Source of the DNA: a virus
Length of the DNA stretch: 64,000 nucleotides
Reading direction: 5' to 3' (one strand)
Virus record (IMG/VR): IMGVR_UViG_3300042892_005063
Coordinates: 43,041-107,040 of that record
Shown: piece after piece, positions 9,235 to 63,415 of the stretch
Numbering within the stretch: the first letter of the stretch is position 1
Layout of the letters: every line of letters begins with the position of its first letter
Position numbers and translations under genes: made by a program
Notes under the pieces: generated by a model
The model's input: only the letters and a program-made list of their open reading frames with translations
What the model was told of the DNA's origin: nothing
Databases searched by the model: none

Positions 9235-11553
9235 TTGAACTCAGATTCCAGCCATCCCGAACTCATTCGCTTCGCGTCGCAGATGGTGGACATCGCCCGT
9301 CGCCAGAAGCACGAAGCCGTCATGCTCGAACACGTCGTCATGACGTGCTTGAAGTCGGACGACGTCATCGAAGCCCTCGAAAAGCTGGACGTGGACGCCG
9401 AGGATGTCGAGGACGACCTGATCAACTATTTCAAGTCGGGCTACATCCCGCAAGTCCAGAATGCGAACCCGCCGCTCAGCACCACCGTCAACGAAGTGCT
9501 GTCGCGTGCCGCCCACTCGGCGAAGTCGCAGAGCCGCGCCGTCACCGGTCTGGATATCCTCGTGAAGGTGTTCGGCTATACGGCCGAAGACAGTTTCGCC
9601 GTCGAGGTTCTGACCAAGAACGGCCTGACGGGCTTCAAGCTGTCCAACTACATGGGCGAAGCCTCGGGTGAAGACCCCGCACTGGCCAACGGCAATCATG
9701 GCGGCGGCGCGTTCCAGATCACGAACGCCGACGAGGCCCGCATTTTCCTCGCCAAATACTGCGAGAACCTCAACGACCGCGCCAAGGAGTCGAAGATCGA
9801 CCCCCTGATCGGTCGCGAGGATGAAGTCGCCCTGATCGTGCAGATCACGGCCCGTCGCACCAAGAACAACGCCATCCTGGTCGGTGAACCCGGCGTCGGC
9901 AAGACCGCCATCGCGGAGGGTCTGGCCAAGCAGATCGTCGAGGGCAACGTGCCCGCCATTCTGGCCAACGCCGAAGTGTGGAGCCTCGACGTCGGCGCCC
10001 TGATGGCCGGAACGAAATACCGGGGCGAAATGGAAGAGCGTCTGAAGCAGACGATCAAGGCGTTCGAATTCATCGACGAATCCATCGTCTTCATCGACGA
10101 AATCCACACCATCATGGGTGCGGGCGGCGGCGGCTCCGCGCTCGACATCGCCAACCTGCTGAAGCCCGCCCTGTCCAAGGGCACGCTGCGCTGCATCGGT
10201 TCCACGACCTTCGAGGAGTTCCGCAAGCACTTCGAGAAGGACCGCGCCTTGCTGCGCCGGTTCAAGCGCGTGGACGTCAACGAGCCCTCGCTCGAAACGA
10301 CCAAGCTCATCCTGGCCGGGCTGAAGTTCAAATACGAAGAGTTCCACGGCGTCACCTACACCGACGAAGCCATCGACGCGGCGGCCGATCTCACCTACCG
10401 GTACATCAACAATGCCCTGCTGCCCGACAAGGCCATCGACATCATGGACGCCGCTGGTGCGGCCCAGAAGGTTCGTGGCGAGGAAGGCCTGAAGGTCATC
10501 ACCCTCGGTGAGATCGAGACCGAAGTCGCCAAGGTGGCCCGCATCCCGCTCAAGACCATCGCGGAAGACGAGACCGACAAGCTCACCCATCTGGAAACCG
10601 ATCTCCAGAAGAGCGTGTTCGGCCAGGACAAGGCCCTGACCGCCCTGTGCGACGCCGTGTTCGTCACCCGCGCCGGTCTGCGCGACACCAACAAGCCCTC
10701 GGGCTCGTTCCTGTTCGCCGGTCCCACGGGCGTCGGCAAGACCGAGGCCACGCGCCAACTCGCCGACACGCTGGGCGTGCCGCTGATCAAATACGACATG
10801 TCTGAGTTCATGGAGAAGCACACCATCTCCAAGCTGATCGGTTCGCCTCCGGGCTACGTTGGCTACGAGGACGGCGGCGCCGGGTCGGGCAAGCTCGTCA
10901 ACGACATCGAGACGCACCCCTACTGTGTCCTGCTGCTCGACGAAATCGAGAAGGCTCACCCGGACATTTATTCGATCTTCCTTCAGGTCATGGATGACGG
11001 CGTCCTGACGTCCTCGTCCGGCAAGAAGGTCGATTTCCGCAACGTCATCATCGTCATGACGACGAACGCGGGCGCGTTCGAGCAGAGCCGGAACACCATC
11101 GGTTTCGGGGTGCAGACGGGCGGCGACCCCATGGAGGCGATCAAGCGGCTCTTCACGCCGGAGTTCCTGAACCGCCTCGACGCCATCGTGGGCTTCAACC
11201 GCCTGTCCCAGGAGCACATCCTGAAGGTGGTGGACAAGTTCCTGCTCAAACTCGCCGAACAGGCCGGGGAGCGCGGCGTTACCATCGACGTCGGCCCGGA
11301 AGCCCGCACGTGGCTGGCCAAGCACGGCTTCGACGACAAGATGGGCGCGCGTCCGCTCAACCGGTCCATCCACGACCACATCAAGACGCCGCTCAGCCGT
11401 CAGATGACCATCGGTGATCTGAAGTTCGGCGGCACCGCCACCGTGACCGTGGACGGCGACAAGCTGGTCATCACCTCGGTGGCGGCCCCGGCCAAGCCGG
11501 TCATCGTTCCGGTGATCGAAGCCGAAGAAGAGAAGAGCGCGGTCTCGGTCTAA
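9235..11553 (+). CDS. clpA: ATP-dependent Clp protease ATP-binding subunit ClpA
   Basis: 772 residues, full length for ClpA. It has a Clp N-domain (to ~150), AAA+ module 1 with Walker A GEPGVGKTA (~220-228) and Walker B IVFIDEIHT (~285), then AAA+ module 2 with Walker A GPTGVGKTE (~496-504) and VLLLDEIEKAHPD. TIGFGV in the second module occupies the place of the IGL/F loop that docks onto ClpP, so it probably works with host ClpP. No clpP is in the window. Start is TTG 9235, placed to keep the helical N-domain. As ClpAP can degrade ALAA-tagged proteins, it pairs logically with the tmRNA at 62.9 kb. Confidence 0.96.
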   Translation: MNSDSSHPELIRFASQMVDIARRQKHEAVMLEHVVMTCLKSDDVIEALEKLDVDAEDVEDDLINYFKSGYIPQVQNANPPLSTTVNEVLSRAAHSAKSQSRAVTGLDILVKVFGYTAEDSFAVEVLTKNGLTGFKLSNYMGEASGEDPALANGNHGGGAFQITNADEARIFLAKYCENLNDRAKESKIDPLIGREDEVALIVQITARRTKNNAILVGEPGVGKTAIAEGLAKQIVEGNVPAILANAEVWSLDVGALMAGTKYRGEMEERLKQTIKAFEFIDESIVFIDEIHTIMGAGGGGSALDIANLLKPALSKGTLRCIGSTTFEEFRKHFEKDRALLRRFKRVDVNEPSLETTKLILAGLKFKYEEFHGVTYTDEAIDAAADLTYRYINNALLPDKAIDIMDAAGAAQKVRGEEGLKVITLGEIETEVAKVARIPLKTIAEDETDKLTHLETDLQKSVFGQDKALTALCDAVFVTRAGLRDTNKPSGSFLFAGPTGVGKTEATRQLADTLGVPLIKYDMSEFMEKHTISKLIGSPPGYVGYEDGGAGSGKLVNDIETHPYCVLLLDEIEKAHPDIYSIFLQVMDDGVLTSSSGKKVDFRNVIIVMTTNAGAFEQSRNTIGFGVQTGGDPMEAIKRLFTPEFLNRLDAIVGFNRLSQEHILKVVDKFLLKLAEQAGERGVTIDVGPEARTWLAKHGFDDKMGARPLNRSIHDHIKTPLSRQMTIGDLKFGGTATVTVDGDKLVITSVAAPAKPVIVPVIEAEEEKSAVSV

Positions 11554-17644: not shown

Positions 17645-19816
17645 ATGTCTTCTACTAAGAATTTCGGTGTGGATGGCATTGGTTCGAATGTCCAGTTCGG
17701 CAAGGGCGGCTCTCGAATCGCCAATGACAGCGGAAGCCTGAAAGTCCTGAACCCATCCGGCGCCGCATTGGCGACACTCCGAGTCGCGTCTCCGGTTGCC
17801 GATGAAGACGCGATCACGTTTCTGCTCCACAAAAACGATCTCGGGACGATCAAGACCAACGTTGGCCTCGACGGCAACGGGCATTATGTCGCGAACACGT
17901 TCTCATCCTATATTGCGTCCGCCACTTCGTTCAAGACCGCAGATGACGCTCTGGACGGCGCGCTTGCCGCGCTTCAGATCGAAGTCAACTCTATAGAGAC
18001 CGGGACGGGCCTCAACGCGAACGGGACCCTGACCGTTCCTGGCTCCACCTATCTCGCCAACTCGACATCACTCCTTAACGCGATCACTAAACTGGACACC
18101 GCTCTGAACACCGTTCAGGGCGAGTTGAACGTCACCCAAACCGGCGTCGGACTATCTACGAGCGGCACCTACGTGGTGCCGACTGGAACCAACTATCTTT
18201 CGGGCTCGACCACCCTGGCCTCGGCGACCATTCTTCTGGATACGGCCATCTTCGCCGTTCAGGGCGAACTCAACGTAGTCGAAACTGCGGTTGGTCTCGG
18301 CGGCGATGGCACCCTTCCTGCCTGGACGACCCCGAACTACATCAGCGGTTCGACCTCTCTCATCCAGGCCATTTCGTCACTCGACGATCAACTCAAGTCC
18401 ACCAACGACACCCTGACCTCAATGGGTTCCGCGCTCTCGTATCGCGGAACCGTGGCGGGCGGCGCCGCAGAAATTTCCGCGTTCGATCTCGATACCCTGT
18501 CCGAGACTACCGGCTCGTATTACAAGGTCTCGCAATCTGGTCATTTCTCTTATGACGGAGGAGACACGTTCTTCGCCAACGTCAATGACGGTATCGTCAA
18601 GAACATGGACGGTGGTTGGGATATCATCGACAACACCAACGCGGCTGTCTTTGGTTCGTCAAACCGCATCGCCGTCACGGGCTCGCTAGATGATGGCTTC
18701 ACGGTCGATATATCGTCCTCCTACGTGGGCCAGTCATCAATCACCACGCTGGGCACCATCACGAACGGCGTCTGGAACGGAACCGCTATCTCGGCCGTGC
18801 GCGGCGGCACCGGCCAGACCGTCTACGCGGTTGGCGATATTCTGGTTGCGACGTCCACGACTGCTCTGGAGAAACTCCCCCGTGGTTCTGCCAAGCAACA
18901 GCTTCGCATCAATAGCGCAGGTGAAACTCTCGAATACGCCGATCTCATTGCTGCGGACGTTGCGTTCTCGGATGGCTCGTACACAGCCACGAACGCATCG
19001 ACGGCCCTGATTGAAGTCCGCACCAAGGTCAACGCGGTACAGACCGGCGCCGGTCTGACCAGCGCGGGAGACTTCGTAGCGAACACGTCCACTACCTACA
19101 TTGCTGCCGCGACCTCGCTCAAACAGTCCGACAATCTTCTCGATGTAGCCATTTCCACTCTTGCGACCACGGTTGGGAACATGACGGAGGCGGAAATCTT
19201 TTCTCCGAACACGTTCTACTCTGTCAAAACGACCAACACCCAGACGGAGTTCTACGGCAATGTCAACGCGGCCAAGGTTCTGGTCGGCAAGGTGGTCTCG
19301 GGGAACAACACCAACACGCGTTTCTCCATCGACATGGCGACCGCTGGCCGCGCCAAGCTGGCTGTCGAGAGCGGCACCCTCTCCAACGCAGACCTCGCCC
19401 TGGTCCCGCTCGGAACCGGTTCCATTGATGCCAGCGGCGCCCGGATGACCAATCTCGCCAACGCGACCCAGAACGCGGACGCCGTGAGCTTCGGTTTCGC
19501 AAAATCGACCATGACCTCATATAAGACCGTGGCTTTCACGGAAGCCAACGCACCCGTCTCGCTCGGGACCCTGAACGGCCTCGTCAAGCGCGTCATCGTG
19601 CAGATCAACGATGCGTTCGCCGCCCCCTCCGGGGTGACGGTGGGAACGTCCGGGAACACCTCCCTTCTTGTCACTGGCGCCGACATCGACCACTCCGAAG
19701 AAGGTATCTACATCGTAGACGTCATCGCCTCGGTGAACGCAGTGGTCTCCGTTTACATCTCCGGGTCCGGTGCGGGCACCGGCACGGTGATCGTCGAATA
19801 TCTCGCGAGTCAATAA
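17645..19816 (+). CDS. Repeat-containing tail fibre
   Basis: 723 residues. At least five copies of a ~50-residue repeat (pattern TGxGLxxxGxYV...TYIxxATSL...Dx-LD-A) lie in residues ~75-260 and again ~455-515, separated by a non-repeat section. Similar repeats are known in T4-like marine phage fibres. The C-terminal ~85 residues (VKRVIVQINDAFAAPSGVTV ... GTVIVEYLA) match the cap of the 15612 protein. Likely a long fibre shaft with receptor-facing end. Confidence 0.85.
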   Translation: MSSTKNFGVDGIGSNVQFGKGGSRIANDSGSLKVLNPSGAALATLRVASPVADEDAITFLLHKNDLGTIKTNVGLDGNGHYVANTFSSYIASATSFKTADDALDGALAALQIEVNSIETGTGLNANGTLTVPGSTYLANSTSLLNAITKLDTALNTVQGELNVTQTGVGLSTSGTYVVPTGTNYLSGSTTLASATILLDTAIFAVQGELNVVETAVGLGGDGTLPAWTTPNYISGSTSLIQAISSLDDQLKSTNDTLTSMGSALSYRGTVAGGAAEISAFDLDTLSETTGSYYKVSQSGHFSYDGGDTFFANVNDGIVKNMDGGWDIIDNTNAAVFGSSNRIAVTGSLDDGFTVDISSSYVGQSSITTLGTITNGVWNGTAISAVRGGTGQTVYAVGDILVATSTTALEKLPRGSAKQQLRINSAGETLEYADLIAADVAFSDGSYTATNASTALIEVRTKVNAVQTGAGLTSAGDFVANTSTTYIAAATSLKQSDNLLDVAISTLATTVGNMTEAEIFSPNTFYSVKTTNTQTEFYGNVNAAKVLVGKVVSGNNTNTRFSIDMATAGRAKLAVESGTLSNADLALVPLGTGSIDASGARMTNLANATQNADAVSFGFAKSTMTSYKTVAFTEANAPVSLGTLNGLVKRVIVQINDAFAAPSGVTVGTSGNTSLLVTGADIDHSEEGIYIVDVIASVNAVVSVYISGSGAGTGTVIVEYLASQ

Positions 19817-40445: not shown

Positions 40446-40521
<76 letters not shown>

Positions 40522-40814: not shown

Positions 40815-40890
40815 GGGGTCTTAGCTCATCTGGTAGAGCGCAACACTGGCAGTGTTGAGGTGGCGGGTTCGAGTCCCGCAGATTCCACCA
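40815..40890 (+). tRNA. tRNA-Ala (GGC)
   Basis: Acceptor GGGGTCT/AGATTCC with G3-U70, anticodon GGC (40848-40850) in loop CTGGCAG, T-loop TTCGAGT, encoded CCA. Confidence 0.95.
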
Positions 40891-41204: not shown

Positions 41205-41279
41205 GGGGATATAGCTTAACGGGTAAAGCGCGCCCCTCGCACGGGCAAGTCTGCGGTTCGATTCCGCATATCTCCACCA
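41205..41279 (+). tRNA. tRNA-Ala (CGC)
   Basis: Acceptor GGGGATA/TATCTCC with G3-U70, anticodon loop CTCGCAC, T-loop TTCGATT, encoded CCA. Completes reading of all four Ala codons with TGC and GGC. Confidence 0.95.
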
Positions 41280-41284
41280 ACAAC

Positions 41285-41356
41285 GGGCGGCACAGCCAGT
41301 GCAATGGGAATAAGCTTTCCCAGAAGAGTGGGAGTGGCTCTCCCCTCCGTCCACCA
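41285..41356 (+). ncRNA. tRNA-like RNA with G3-U70 and CCA
   Basis: 72 bases. Acceptor GGGCGGC pairs six of seven with TCCGTCC, including G3-U70, followed by ACCA. Inner hairpins TGGGAA/TTCCCA and GGGAG/CTCCC are present, but the D-arm is not recognisable and the T-loop is abnormal. Its ends carry the alanine identity pair. Confidence 0.5.
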
Positions 41357-41361
41357 AACAG

Positions 41362-41440
41362 GGGCCAGAGAACCACAGGCGTGGTTCGACGGTGAAGGGG
41401 GTCGCTCCTCCATGGGGTTCGATGCCCCACTGGTCCACCA
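41362..41440 (+). ncRNA. tRNA-like RNA with G3-U70, T-arm and CCA, abutting the AlaRS-like gene
   Basis: 79 bases. Acceptor GGGCCAG/CTGGTCC forms seven pairs including G3-U70, then ACCA; the T-arm TGGGG-TTCGATG-CCCCA (41413-41429) is standard. The D and anticodon arms are replaced by a perfect GAACCAC-AGGC-GTGGTTC hairpin and a GGGGG/TCCTCC stem, so there is no anticodon. It ends 30 bases before the likely start of the AlaRS-like gene, so it could be a charged RNA or a tRNA mimic controlling that gene. Confidence 0.6.
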
Positions 41441-42323
41441 TTTCAACACCAACATCCTGGGAGGATGCTATGACACTGCGGGACGCCTAACAGAGACCTA
41501 CCGGACTTTCTGCCTCGAACGCGGCATTGAGTTTCATGAGGTCAAGAGTGTGAGACCACACGACAACACGACCTTGTTCTGCCCTGCGGGGATGCAGCAG
41601 TTCAAGGAAGACTACCGGGGACATCGTCGCGGGACCGTATCCAATATTCAGTCCTGCATCCGGCTCAATGATCTGGATGAAATCGGCGACCAAACCCACC
41701 ACCTAACCTTCGACATGATCGGGCTGTTTTCGTTCCGTGACATGAGCGTTCTGGAGACCATCGATTTCTGGTTCGAATTCCTCTCCAAGATTGGCATCAA
41801 GCCCGACGTGGTCACCATCCACCCGGACAAGATGCTGGACTGGCGAGAACTCTATCGGGGCCGCGACGTAGAAATACGGCCGGACCCGGAGTGCACGTGG
41901 TCGGACGGCGGCATGGGTGGATACTGCACGGAGTTCTACGTCAGAGGCGTGGAGATCGGCAACATCGTGAATACCAACGGAGATTCAATCGACGTCGGTT
42001 TCGGGATGGAACGCCTTCTCTGGGTTCTCGGCGAAGAAACGCCACCGCGTGGGGACATCCTGGTCCGCACCATCGACCGCATCGTTGAGTCGGGATACCG
42101 GCCCAGCGGCAAGCAGCAGGGTCATGTGCTCCGGCGCCTGATCGGGTTGCTGACAGACGAGGGCAGCCATCCCAACCACCCCGAGGTCGTCAGCGAGACG
42201 TCCAGACGGGTGAAGCTCTCGGAACGCTTCGACCGCCTTTGGCCGAAGCATCAAGACAAGTCGCCAGAGTGGTGGCTGGACACCCACGGTATCGTGGTGT
42301 CTGAAATGGTCCTCAGGGTGTAG
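41412..42323 (+). CDS. Minimal alanyl-tRNA synthetase-like protein
   Basis: Up to 303 residues from ATG 41412. Class II AlaRS catalytic blocks are in order: NTTLFCPAGMQQFKEDYRG (motif 1 region), DQTHHLTFDMIGLFSFRD (motif 2), SIDVGFGMERLLWVL (motif 3), then GKQQGHVLRRLIGLL and WWLDTHGIVVSEM at the end. Cellular AlaRS is ~870 residues; the editing and C-Ala domains are missing here. It lies in a cluster of tRNA-Ala and G3-U70 tRNA-like RNAs. The true start is unclear: ATG 41412 lies within a tRNA-like T-arm, while the best ribosome site (GGGAGG) serves ATG 41470 in another frame. Its stop lies inside the next tRNA. Confidence 0.85.
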   Translation: MGFDAPLVHHFNTNILGGCYDTAGRLTETYRTFCLERGIEFHEVKSVRPHDNTTLFCPAGMQQFKEDYRGHRRGTVSNIQSCIRLNDLDEIGDQTHHLTFDMIGLFSFRDMSVLETIDFWFEFLSKIGIKPDVVTIHPDKMLDWRELYRGRDVEIRPDPECTWSDGGMGGYCTEFYVRGVEIGNIVNTNGDSIDVGFGMERLLWVLGEETPPRGDILVRTIDRIVESGYRPSGKQQGHVLRRLIGLLTDEGSHPNHPEVVSETSRRVKLSERFDRLWPKHQDKSPEWWLDTHGIVVSEMVLRV

Positions 42324-42388
42324 CTCAGTGGCAGAGCGCACGGTCGGGAATCGTGAGGCCGGGATTTCAAAATTCCCCACCCTGACCA
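42314..42388 (+). tRNA. tRNA-Pro (GGG), unusual C33
   Basis: Acceptor CAGGGTG/CACCCTG with C1-G72 and A73 as in tRNA-Pro, D-arm GCTC/GAGC, anticodon loop TCGGGAA giving GGG (42346-42348), T-loop TTCAAAA, encoded CCA. Position 33 is C rather than the near-universal U. The first ten bases overlap the end of the AlaRS-like gene. Confidence 0.82.
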
Positions 42389-42433: not shown

Positions 42434-42862
42434 ATGAAGTCATGCACCAAATGTAAACACATACTCACAGACGATCAGTTCTCAGCGAAAAATTTGACTA
42501 AAAACGCTGCGTGGTGTCGCCCCTGCATCAAGGCATATGATCAGGCCAGATGGTCTGCCGGTTCTCGACGAGAAACCAAAATCGAACAGACAAAAATTTG
42601 TCGCCGAAGAAACCGTCAGCATGTTTGGGACTACCTGACTAGGAATCCATGTCCTTGCGGCGAGACAGACCCCATCGTTCTAGAATTTGACCACCGCGAT
42701 GGAATGGAAACAAAACGAGGCAATATATGCGAGATGGCCTCACGGGGCCTGTCGATAGAAACTATCGATGCGGAGATCGCCAAATGCGACGTGCTATGTG
42801 CGAACTGCCATAGACGAAAAACGGCAAAGCAGTTCGGCTGGCACGCCGATCTTATTACTTGA
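42434..42862 (+). CDS. HNH endonuclease with zinc fingers, A+T-richer
   Basis: 142 residues. N-terminal CTKCKH...CRPC finger, then CPCGETDPIVLEFDHRDG and LCANCHRRKTAKQFG: the H-N-H pattern with DH and CxxCH typical of phage homing-type HNH nucleases. Codon use is visibly more A+T-rich than in its neighbours, suggesting recent transfer. Its place right after the tRNA cluster is typical of free-standing homing nucleases. Confidence 0.87.
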   Translation: MKSCTKCKHILTDDQFSAKNLTKNAAWCRPCIKAYDQARWSAGSRRETKIEQTKICRRRNRQHVWDYLTRNPCPCGETDPIVLEFDHRDGMETKRGNICEMASRGLSIETIDAEIAKCDVLCANCHRRKTAKQFGWHADLIT

Positions 42863-47640: not shown

Positions 47641-47653
47641 TGAAAAAAAGTTA

Positions 47654-62888: not shown

Positions 62889-62918
62889 TTGACAGTTTCC
62901 GGCCAAGGTGATTAAATA
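62889..62918 (+). promoter_or_regulatory. Promoter of the tmRNA
   Basis: TTGACA (62889-62894), 18-nt spacer, TAAATA (62913-62918), immediately after the 62887 stop. Confidence 0.75.
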
Positions 62919-62924
62919 ACTGCG

Positions 62925-63326
62925 TGTTGGTGACCAAATCAACCGCTTAGGCAGGACCGGGGTGCGAATCCCCGCGCCTCCACCAAAAACACATAGCCCG
63001 CTGAGATACGCGGGGAGCCGACTGTCATGTAAGCCGGGTTGGGGTTTCTAGAGCCCTGGCTATCAACGGTAGATCGGGGACAGTCACAAGGCGGCTAGAG
63101 TTCCTTAGCGGGGGCAACAGTCTAGGCTCGCTACGACCGATATGGTCTGTGTGTTTTTGATGGGGGCGAATAGCTATCGACTGATAGGCGTAGAGGCGAG
63201 AGACACCGGTAAGAAACGACCGAAAATCAGTTCAAATTTCTACCTGCCAACGACAACGTTGACATGGGTTCCTACGCCCTCGCGGCGTAAGGAACTCGGG
63301 GCCCACTGGGGGCCTAGCAACAGAAG
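62925..63326 (+). ncRNA. ssrA: Circularly permuted two-piece tmRNA
   Basis: Acceptor piece first: T-arm CGGGG-TGCGAAT-CCCCG (62958-62974), acceptor strand CGCCTCC and ACCA to 62985. The coding piece begins at 63162 with GGGGGCGAATAGCTATCGAC, whose first seven bases pair with CGCCTCC including G3-U70, the alanine identity pair. The tag frame starts at GCC 63246 and ends TAA 63288-63290: ANDNVDMGSYALAA. Sequences near 62943 (GCTTAGGC) and 63312 (GCCTAGC) can form the helix joining the pieces. The 176-nt interval is long for a permuted gene. Rescues stalled ribosomes and tags products for Clp proteolysis. Confidence 0.93.
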
Positions 63327-63355
63327 GGGAGACTTCGGTCTCCCCACCTTTGTTT
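63327..63355 (+). terminator. Terminator of the tmRNA
   Basis: Perfect GGGGAGAC-TTCG-GTCTCCCC stem (63327-63346) followed by a T-rich stretch. Confidence 0.8.
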
Positions 63356-63415
63356 CGGTTGACCGTTTCGAAATCTCCGACTAAACCGGTCTACGAAATA
63401 ATCCGAGAAAAGCCC

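What the first reader, a model, noticed from the sequence alone, without database searches (positions are those of the whole stretch)
41412..42323. Minimal alanyl-tRNA synthetase-like gene embedded in a tRNA cluster
The protein keeps the three class II AlaRS catalytic motifs in ~300 residues but lacks the editing and C-terminal domains. Its neighbours are three tRNA-Ala genes and tRNA-like RNAs with the alanine identity pair, and the phage also has a tmRNA, which must be charged with alanine. I know of no described phage system of this kind. It may charge phage RNAs, or act as a non-canonical alanyl-transferase module.
Basis: partly seen in the sequence, partly recalled or inferred. Interest (0 to 1): 0.93.

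Follow-up and report, generated by a model that had tools for sequence, protein, structure and literature searches.

The report
Mini alanine enzyme with frameshift switch
A giant phage carries a stripped-down enzyme that loads alanine onto tRNA, and its gene appears to be read only when the ribosome slips one base at an alanine codon; the same arrangement, with a histidine codon, sits in the phage's mini histidine enzyme, which suggests a new way for a cell or virus to sense that a charged tRNA is running out.

Summary
The gene is real. It encodes a ~280-residue alanyl-tRNA synthetase (AlaRS) core with all tested ATP- and alanine-pocket residues, no editing domain and no C-Ala domain. It belongs to a coherent family (~65 viral contigs, 49 bacterial loci, mostly Rhizobiales) under purifying selection, separate from canonical AlaRS.

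In the window and about 60 relatives there is no ordinary in-frame start near the N-terminus. Instead a start codon opens a short leader in another frame (window MTLRDA*, 41470-41490). The leader reaches an invariant (Asp/Asn)-Ala dicodon, and the synthetase continues in the -1 frame. All other relatives examined have an in-frame ATG. The base that varies is the wobble base of the leader's alanine codon, so selection acts on that codon.

The same phage's mini-HisRS independently shows a conserved +1 shift at a histidine codon (16 sequences, including an isolated Sinorhizobium phage).

Best reading: an emergency synthetase made when ribosomes stall at its own amino acid's codon, like the release-factor-2 switch. 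A 2016 review knew no such natural case. Shown: sequence pattern. Inferred: shifting, starvation gating, charging. The tRNA-like RNAs are partly real; their role is unknown.

The parts
40446..40521 (+). tRNA-Ala(UGC), G3:U70, CCA encoded
   Evidence: ARAGORN; Rfam RF00005; G3:U70 read
40815..40890 (+). tRNA-Ala(GGC), G3:U70
41205..41279 (+). tRNA-Ala(CGC), G3:U70
41285..41353 (+). weak tRNA-like RNA, acceptor GGGCGG/CCGUCC with G3:U70 and ACCA; odd T arm
   Evidence: folding and reading
   Evidence: strict descriptor; absent from shuffles
41459..41464 (+). Shine-Dalgarno GGGAGG of the leader
   Evidence: sequence; AGGAGG conserved in Rhizobiales relatives
41470..41490 (+). leader ORF ATG ACA CTG CGG GAC GCC TAA (MTLRDA*), zero frame
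   Evidence: same leader design in about 60 loci
41482..41487 (+). predicted -1 frameshift site: P-site GAC, A-site alanine codon GCC (re-read as GGA CGC)
   Evidence: A,C,G,C invariant in 36/36 distinct contexts, Ala wobble base free
41484..42323 (+). mini-AlaRS coding region in the -1 frame (RLTETYR...VLRV*)
42314..42388 (+). tRNA-Pro(GGG) overlapping the last codons of the mini-AlaRS gene

Best explanation
The gene makes a minimal, acceptor-stem-only alanyl-tRNA synthetase that is switched on by shortage of charged tRNA-Ala. Translation starts at ATG 41470. When alanyl-tRNA is plentiful the ribosome reads GAC-GCC and stops at TAA, giving a 6-residue peptide. When the alanine codon in the A site stays empty, the tRNA on GAC slips back one base to GGA, the ribosome enters the -1 frame at CGC, and the ~280-residue synthetase is made. 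The enzyme then recharges tRNAs that carry the G3:U70 pair (the phage's own three tRNA-Ala and probably the host's), which closes the loop. SHOWN (by comparison): family, fold, retained active-site residues, purifying selection, conserved out-of-frame leader, invariant alanine codon, and an independent histidine version in mini-HisRS. INFERRED: that the shift occurs, that it depends on the charging state of tRNA-Ala, and that the enzyme charges tRNA.
For: Catalysis: equivalents of E. coli R69, W170, N212, V214, D235, G237 and R242 are invariant in 53/53 aligned members (numbering checked). The G3:U70-reading residues are kept in most: N303 equivalent in 35/53, D400 equivalent in 45/53 (window: Gly and Asp). 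AF2 pLDDT is 90.5 when the chain begins at the proposed shift point, and the PDB hits are AlaRS. dN/dS is about 0.04-0.13. Frameshift: with regex scoring, 57 loci carry the element and 58 have a plain in-frame ATG at the same place. Inspection of the 'other' loci with complete starts added only more of the same two types. At least 16 frameshift loci have no ATG/GTG/TTG at all between the upstream stop and motif 1. They include finished genomes such as R. johnstonii 3841 pRL9. RefSeq start codons for five Rhizobium copies scatter (ATC, ATG, TTG, CTG, ATG) and are all in the -1 frame relative to the leader. Selection on the alanine codon: the fixed bases include the wobble positions of the -1 frame, while the wobble base of the zero-frame GCN varies (C26/A9/T1 of 36). 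The base before the P-site codon always repeats its first base (GG or AA), as -1 re-pairing needs. Replication: mini-HisRS of the same phage and 15 others shifts +1 at (G/C)TT-CAY; CAT/CAC variation is silent in the zero frame but changes Ile to Thr in the +1 frame.
Against: No expression data. GAC to GGA re-pairing is weak (G.U in the middle, mismatch at wobble) and no classic slippery heptamer is present. Many of the 36 contexts are close Rhizobiales relatives. The AGGK motif-2 loop with E. coli K73 is missing; K73A abolishes alanylation in E. coli (PMC6209979), although A. fulgidus AlaRS also lacks that lysine (same paper). The window copy has lost the N303 equivalent. tRNA-Ala is not significantly the nearest tRNA to mini-AlaRS (3 of 17 arrays, 2.5 expected).
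Confidence: 0.6

Rival explanations
1. The enzyme is a true mini-AlaRS, but the leader is not a starvation sensor: the frameshift is constitutive, or the gene is read by re-initiation at a non-AUG codon (for example CUG overlapping the leader's UGA).
For: In most Rhizobiales the leader stop UGA overlaps a CUG in the AlaRS frame, and RefSeq uses that CTG as start in R. beringeri. AlaRS differs from plain-ATG relatives by only a few N-terminal residues, so no coding information must be joined.
Against: The window and L075 have CTA there, and Bacteroidota-type phages have other codons. Re-initiation does not explain the invariant GAC/AAC-GCN. For mini-HisRS it is excluded as a general answer, because about 25 N-terminal residues in the zero frame align with continuous relatives.
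Confidence: 0.2
2. An AlaRS-derived protein that no longer charges tRNA but activates alanine for another acceptor (protein, carrier or glycan).
For: K73 loop lost; Rhizobium copies stand alone without tRNA genes; in one phage group the gene overlaps a dTDP-4-dehydrorhamnose 3,5-epimerase gene.
Against: Both ends of the tRNA-recognition module are kept, with the G3:U70-reading Asn/Asp in most members. Neighbours are not conserved. An alanine-codon leader makes most sense for a tRNA-charging enzyme.
Confidence: 0.12
3. One reading: a dedicated module that alanylates phage tRNA-like RNAs and/or the phage tmRNA.
For: One solid tRNA-like RNA with G3:U70 and ACCA lies directly upstream; the contig has a tmRNA.
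Against: Found only in this phage and its near-identical contig L002; relatives and bacterial copies lack it.
Confidence: 0.06
4. Decaying gene or assembly error; the frameshift is an artefact.
For: Reading frame interrupted near the start.
Against: The same interruption is conserved across about 60 loci including finished genomes; dN/dS is about 0.1.
Confidence: 0.02

Closest known systems
Tupanvirus mini-AlaRS (TuAlaRS; PMC10036535)
   Same: Virus-encoded AlaRS without editing and C-Ala domains; shown there to charge tRNA-Ala and an acceptor-stem RNA with G3:U70 specificity.
   Different: TuAlaRS has 461 residues with a full tRNA-recognition domain and is related to its eukaryotic host's AlaRS. 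This family has about 280 residues, lacks the middle of the tRNA-recognition domain and occurs in bacteria and their phages. No frameshift leader is mentioned in the part of that paper read here.
RF2 (prfB) autoregulatory +1 frameshift (reviewed in PMC5009743)
   Same: A short zero-frame leader ends at the very codon that the gene product serves; failure to decode it shifts the ribosome into the main frame.
   Different: Here the codon is a sense codon served by a synthetase (Ala, -1; His, +1), not UGA served by a release factor.
'Hungry codon' frameshifting (Gallant; PMC5009743)
   Same: Slippage when the A-site aminoacyl-tRNA is scarce.
   Different: Known as an induced error; the review says of regulated trans-frame proteins made this way that 'no examples are known'.
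RefSeq 'alanine--tRNA ligase-related protein' of Rhizobium
   Same: Members of this family, annotated automatically.
   Different: No function or frameshift annotated; start codons inconsistent.
tRNA synthetases of huge phages (Al-Shayeb et al. 2020, PMC7162821)
   Same: Huge phages with tRNA arrays and synthetases; LR745206.1 (634,780 bp, the size class reported there) carries this gene.
   Different: The text as searched does not mention AlaRS or catalytic-core-only forms.

Membership tests
Alanyl-tRNA synthetase (class II) | Class II motifs 1-3 and ATP/alanine-pocket residues | tested here: met
   R69, W170, N212, V214, D235, G237, R242 equivalents 53/53; AlaRS fold
Alanyl-tRNA synthetase (class II) | Asn303/Asp400 that read G3:U70 | tested here: inconclusive
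   Family: N 35/53, D 45/53; window: Gly at 303, Asp at 400
Alanyl-tRNA synthetase (class II) | Motif-2 loop with K73 | tested here: not met
   AGGK deleted in all shown members; archaeal AlaRS also lacks this Lys (PMC6209979)
Alanyl-tRNA synthetase (class II) | Editing and C-Ala domains | tested here: not met
   Protein ends at the DTHG motif of the tRNA-recognition domain
Alanyl-tRNA synthetase (class II) | Charges tRNA-Ala | not testable with these tools
   needs biochemistry
Tupanvirus-type mini-AlaRS | Loss of editing and C-Ala domains only, full tRNA-recognition domain (461 aa) | tested here: not met
   about 280 aa, middle of the tRNA-recognition domain missing
Tupanvirus-type mini-AlaRS | Descent from eukaryotic AlaRS | not tested
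   no eukaryotic AlaRS in the tree; minis are one clade, 100/100, against bacterial AlaRS
prfB-type autoregulatory frameshift | Conserved out-of-frame leader ending at the codon the product serves | tested here: met
   Ala codon at the shift in all 36 distinct contexts; His codon in 16 mini-HisRS
prfB-type autoregulatory frameshift | CUU_UGA +1 site | tested here: not met
   AlaRS: -1 at RAC_GCN; HisRS: +1 at (C/G)TT_CAY
prfB-type autoregulatory frameshift | Shift efficiency rises when the product is scarce | not testable with these tools
   needs reporter assay
T-box riboswitch | Rfam match in the leader | tested here: not met
   no T-box hit at gathering threshold in the window

The most novel reading that the evidence does not exclude
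Phages and rhizobia use programmed frameshifting at a starved sense codon to switch on a minimal synthetase for that same amino acid (Ala by -1, His by +1, perhaps Thr): the first natural sense-codon counterpart of the RF2 switch, and an aminoacyl-tRNA sensor that needs no riboswitch or terminator.
Probability: 0.55. Interest if true: 0.95.

Novelty: new variant of a known kind. Interest (0 to 1): 0.86.

Why it matters
It would be a natural, testable example of hungry-codon frameshifting put to regulatory use, which a major review said was unknown (PMC5009743). It would show that a ~280-residue class II core recognising only the acceptor stem can serve as a working synthetase, which bears on the origin of synthetases and on small orthogonal enzymes for genetic code work. 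It also suggests how huge phages and root-nodule bacteria respond when charged tRNA runs out, for instance under tRNA-targeting defences. Laboratory systems exist: Rhizobium johnstonii 3841 (AlaRS) and Sinorhizobium phage Phosso (HisRS).

Tried and rejected
In-frame start at 41412 or 41304 (inside tRNA-like RNAs; N-terminus not conserved). Pseudogene or assembly error (conserved across about 60 loci, dN/dS about 0.1). Transcriptional slippage (no homopolymer at the AlaRS site; several mini-HisRS sites lack a run, e.g. L217, L228, L229). Mini-GlyRS as a third frameshift case: the members with readable starts have an in-frame ATG or GTG. Mini-AlaRS nearest to tRNA-Ala: not significant. Neighbour-gene function: no conserved operon in phages or Rhizobium. 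ThrRS as a further case: only one sequence plus its own contig. No paper describing the frameshift was found; GeneTack (PMC3711429) lists one unrelated-looking '+1 tRNA synthetase' cluster classed as PV and states that shifts closer than 50 nt to the start escaped detection. Two canonical AlaRS sequences in the first tree were mis-extracted (L197, L198) and were removed.

Full report
WHAT IS THERE. The window is bases 43041-107040 of a 107-kb virus record. At 41412-42323 an ORF encodes an AlaRS-like protein. It sits in a cluster with tRNA-Ala(UGC, GGC, CGC) and tRNA-Pro(UGG, CGG, GGG). An identical copy lies on a second contig (L002, 198 kb); the two are identical from 35412 until an indel at 47649.

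FAMILY. Scans found about 65 viral contigs, LR745206.1 of 634,780 bp among named phage records, 49 bacterial loci and 89 Rhizobium plasmid records. The bacteria are mostly Rhizobium, Neorhizobium and Phyllobacterium, with Inquilinus, Reyranella, an Armatimonadetes MAG and others. Eight of nine host genomes checked also hold a full-length AlaRS. The small proteins form one clade, support 100/100, apart from canonical AlaRS; the window groups with phage contig L124 and a Caulobacteraceae locus. dN/dS is about 0.04-0.13.

ENZYME. Seven ATP- or alanine-pocket residues are invariant in 53 of 53 aligned members. The tRNA-recognition domain keeps its two ends (the PSN...GYVLRR and DTYG regions of E. 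coli) and loses the middle. The G3:U70-reading Asn is kept in 35/53 and the Asp in 45/53; the window has Gly and Asp. The AGGK loop with K73 is gone. K73 matters for alanylation in E. coli but is absent from A. fulgidus AlaRS (PMC6209979). The AF2 model starting at 41484 has pLDDT 90.5, and its first helix begins at residue 2, that is, exactly downstream of the proposed shift point; its 27 best PDB hits are AlaRS. By contrast, residues 1-20 of the 41412 reading are disordered.

THE LEADER. Half of the family begins with an ordinary ATG about 29-30 codons before motif 1. The rest, including the window, has no start codon there. A start codon in the other frame (with AGGAGG in Rhizobiales) opens a peptide of 4-13 residues containing (Asp/Asn)-Ala, and the synthetase lies in the -1 frame. 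Window: ATG ACA CTG CGG GAC GCC TAA. Rhizobiales: ATG TCA TCG CGG GAC GCC TGA. LR745206.1: ATG AAA AGG CTG GAC GCA TTT TAG. L155: ATG ACA CCG CTA AAC GCA ATG TAA. In 36 distinct contexts the bases A-C-G-C are invariant, the two purines before them are GG or AA, and the next base is C, A or T. If selection kept the -1 frame (Gly/Lys-Arg), its wobble bases should drift; they do not. What drifts is the wobble base of the zero-frame alanine codon. The first scoring used the element itself as the criterion, so the remaining loci were inspected: those with complete starts either have an in-frame ATG or carry the same element; none shifts at another codon.

A SECOND CASE. The same virus record encodes a mini-HisRS at about 18.7-19.3 kb of the record, near tRNA-His. 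Its N-terminal part (MLRGTRIITGQEAAAYTNAINTLRGLVH*) is in one frame and the core in the +1 frame. Fifteen further phage sequences show the same, including the isolated Sinorhizobium phage Phosso, whose GenBank HisRS starts at an inner ATG. The zero-frame codon at the shift is CAT or CAC in every one, after GTT or CTT. Continuous relatives (L226, L230, L231, L235, L049, L272) lack the shift. Here both halves are homologous to one continuous protein, so re-initiation cannot explain it. tRNA-His is the nearest tRNA in 9 of 18 arrays (2.5 expected, P 5e-5).

MECHANISM. The parallel is RF2, where low RF2 leaves UGA unread and the ribosome shifts into the RF2 frame (PMC5009743). Here an unread Ala or His codon would shift the ribosome into the frame of the synthetase for that amino acid. 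The same review says that for starvation-specific trans-frame proteins made by hungry-codon frameshifting 'no examples are known'. The shift, its dependence on charging and the enzyme activity are inferences; no expression data were available.

tRNA-LIKE RNAs. One (41362-41440) is convincing and ends 29 nt before the leader ATG, so tRNA-type processing there would leave the leader near the 5' end of the mRNA (inference). It is not seen in other relatives. A role as substrate, decoy or regulator is possible but untested.

LIMITS. Many contexts come from close relatives; the P-site re-pairing for GAC is weak; the window copy lacks one of the two G3:U70 residues; literature coverage is limited to the open library searched.

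Noticed in passing
G000:C1 about 18676-19300 (outside the window); L214-L225, L227-L229; L271 2949-3591 (PV764938.1): Mini-HisRS (about 200 aa) with a conserved +1 frameshift at a His codon; GenBank start of the Phosso HisRS is probably wrong.
   Followed up: yes
L051 1213-1950 (G001), L053-L073, L017 7244-7981: Mini-GlyRS-like cores (about 245 aa) in huge phages, with an ordinary start where readable; tRNA-Gly directly upstream in L060 and L062, and 29 nt away in L070.
   Followed up: partly
L251 about 1225-1252 (507,910-bp contig): A phage ThrRS without in-frame start; an out-of-frame ATG GGA ACG AAA ATT TAG contains a Thr codon where a -1 slip GGA to GGG would enter the ThrRS frame. Single sequence only.
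   Followed up: partly
L017 7152-7229, L139 4848-4923, L170 2099-2174, L126 5032-5108: tRNA-Ala(UGC)-like genes with G3:U70 near mini-AlaRS that ARAGORN misses because of odd D arms.
   Followed up: partly
L017 about 9448-10263: ORF that by eye resembles tRNA-His guanylyltransferase (Thg1) next to mini-AlaRS and mini-GlyRS in LR745206.1; NCBIfam gave no hit.
   Followed up: no
window 62889-63381: Permuted (alphaproteobacterial-type) tmRNA in the phage, tag ANDNVDMGSYALAA.
   Followed up: no
window 42434-42862: ORF resembling the HNH-type endonucleases that also lie beside mini-AlaRS in L007, L011 and L017.
   Followed up: no
L004 6870-7418, L008, L013, L016: dTDP-4-dehydrorhamnose 3,5-epimerase gene overlapping the end of mini-AlaRS in one phage group.
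   Followed up: no
L188-L191 (Rhizobium plasmids): RES/Xre toxin-antitoxin pair directly upstream of the Rhizobium mini-AlaRS gene in four plasmids.
   Followed up: no
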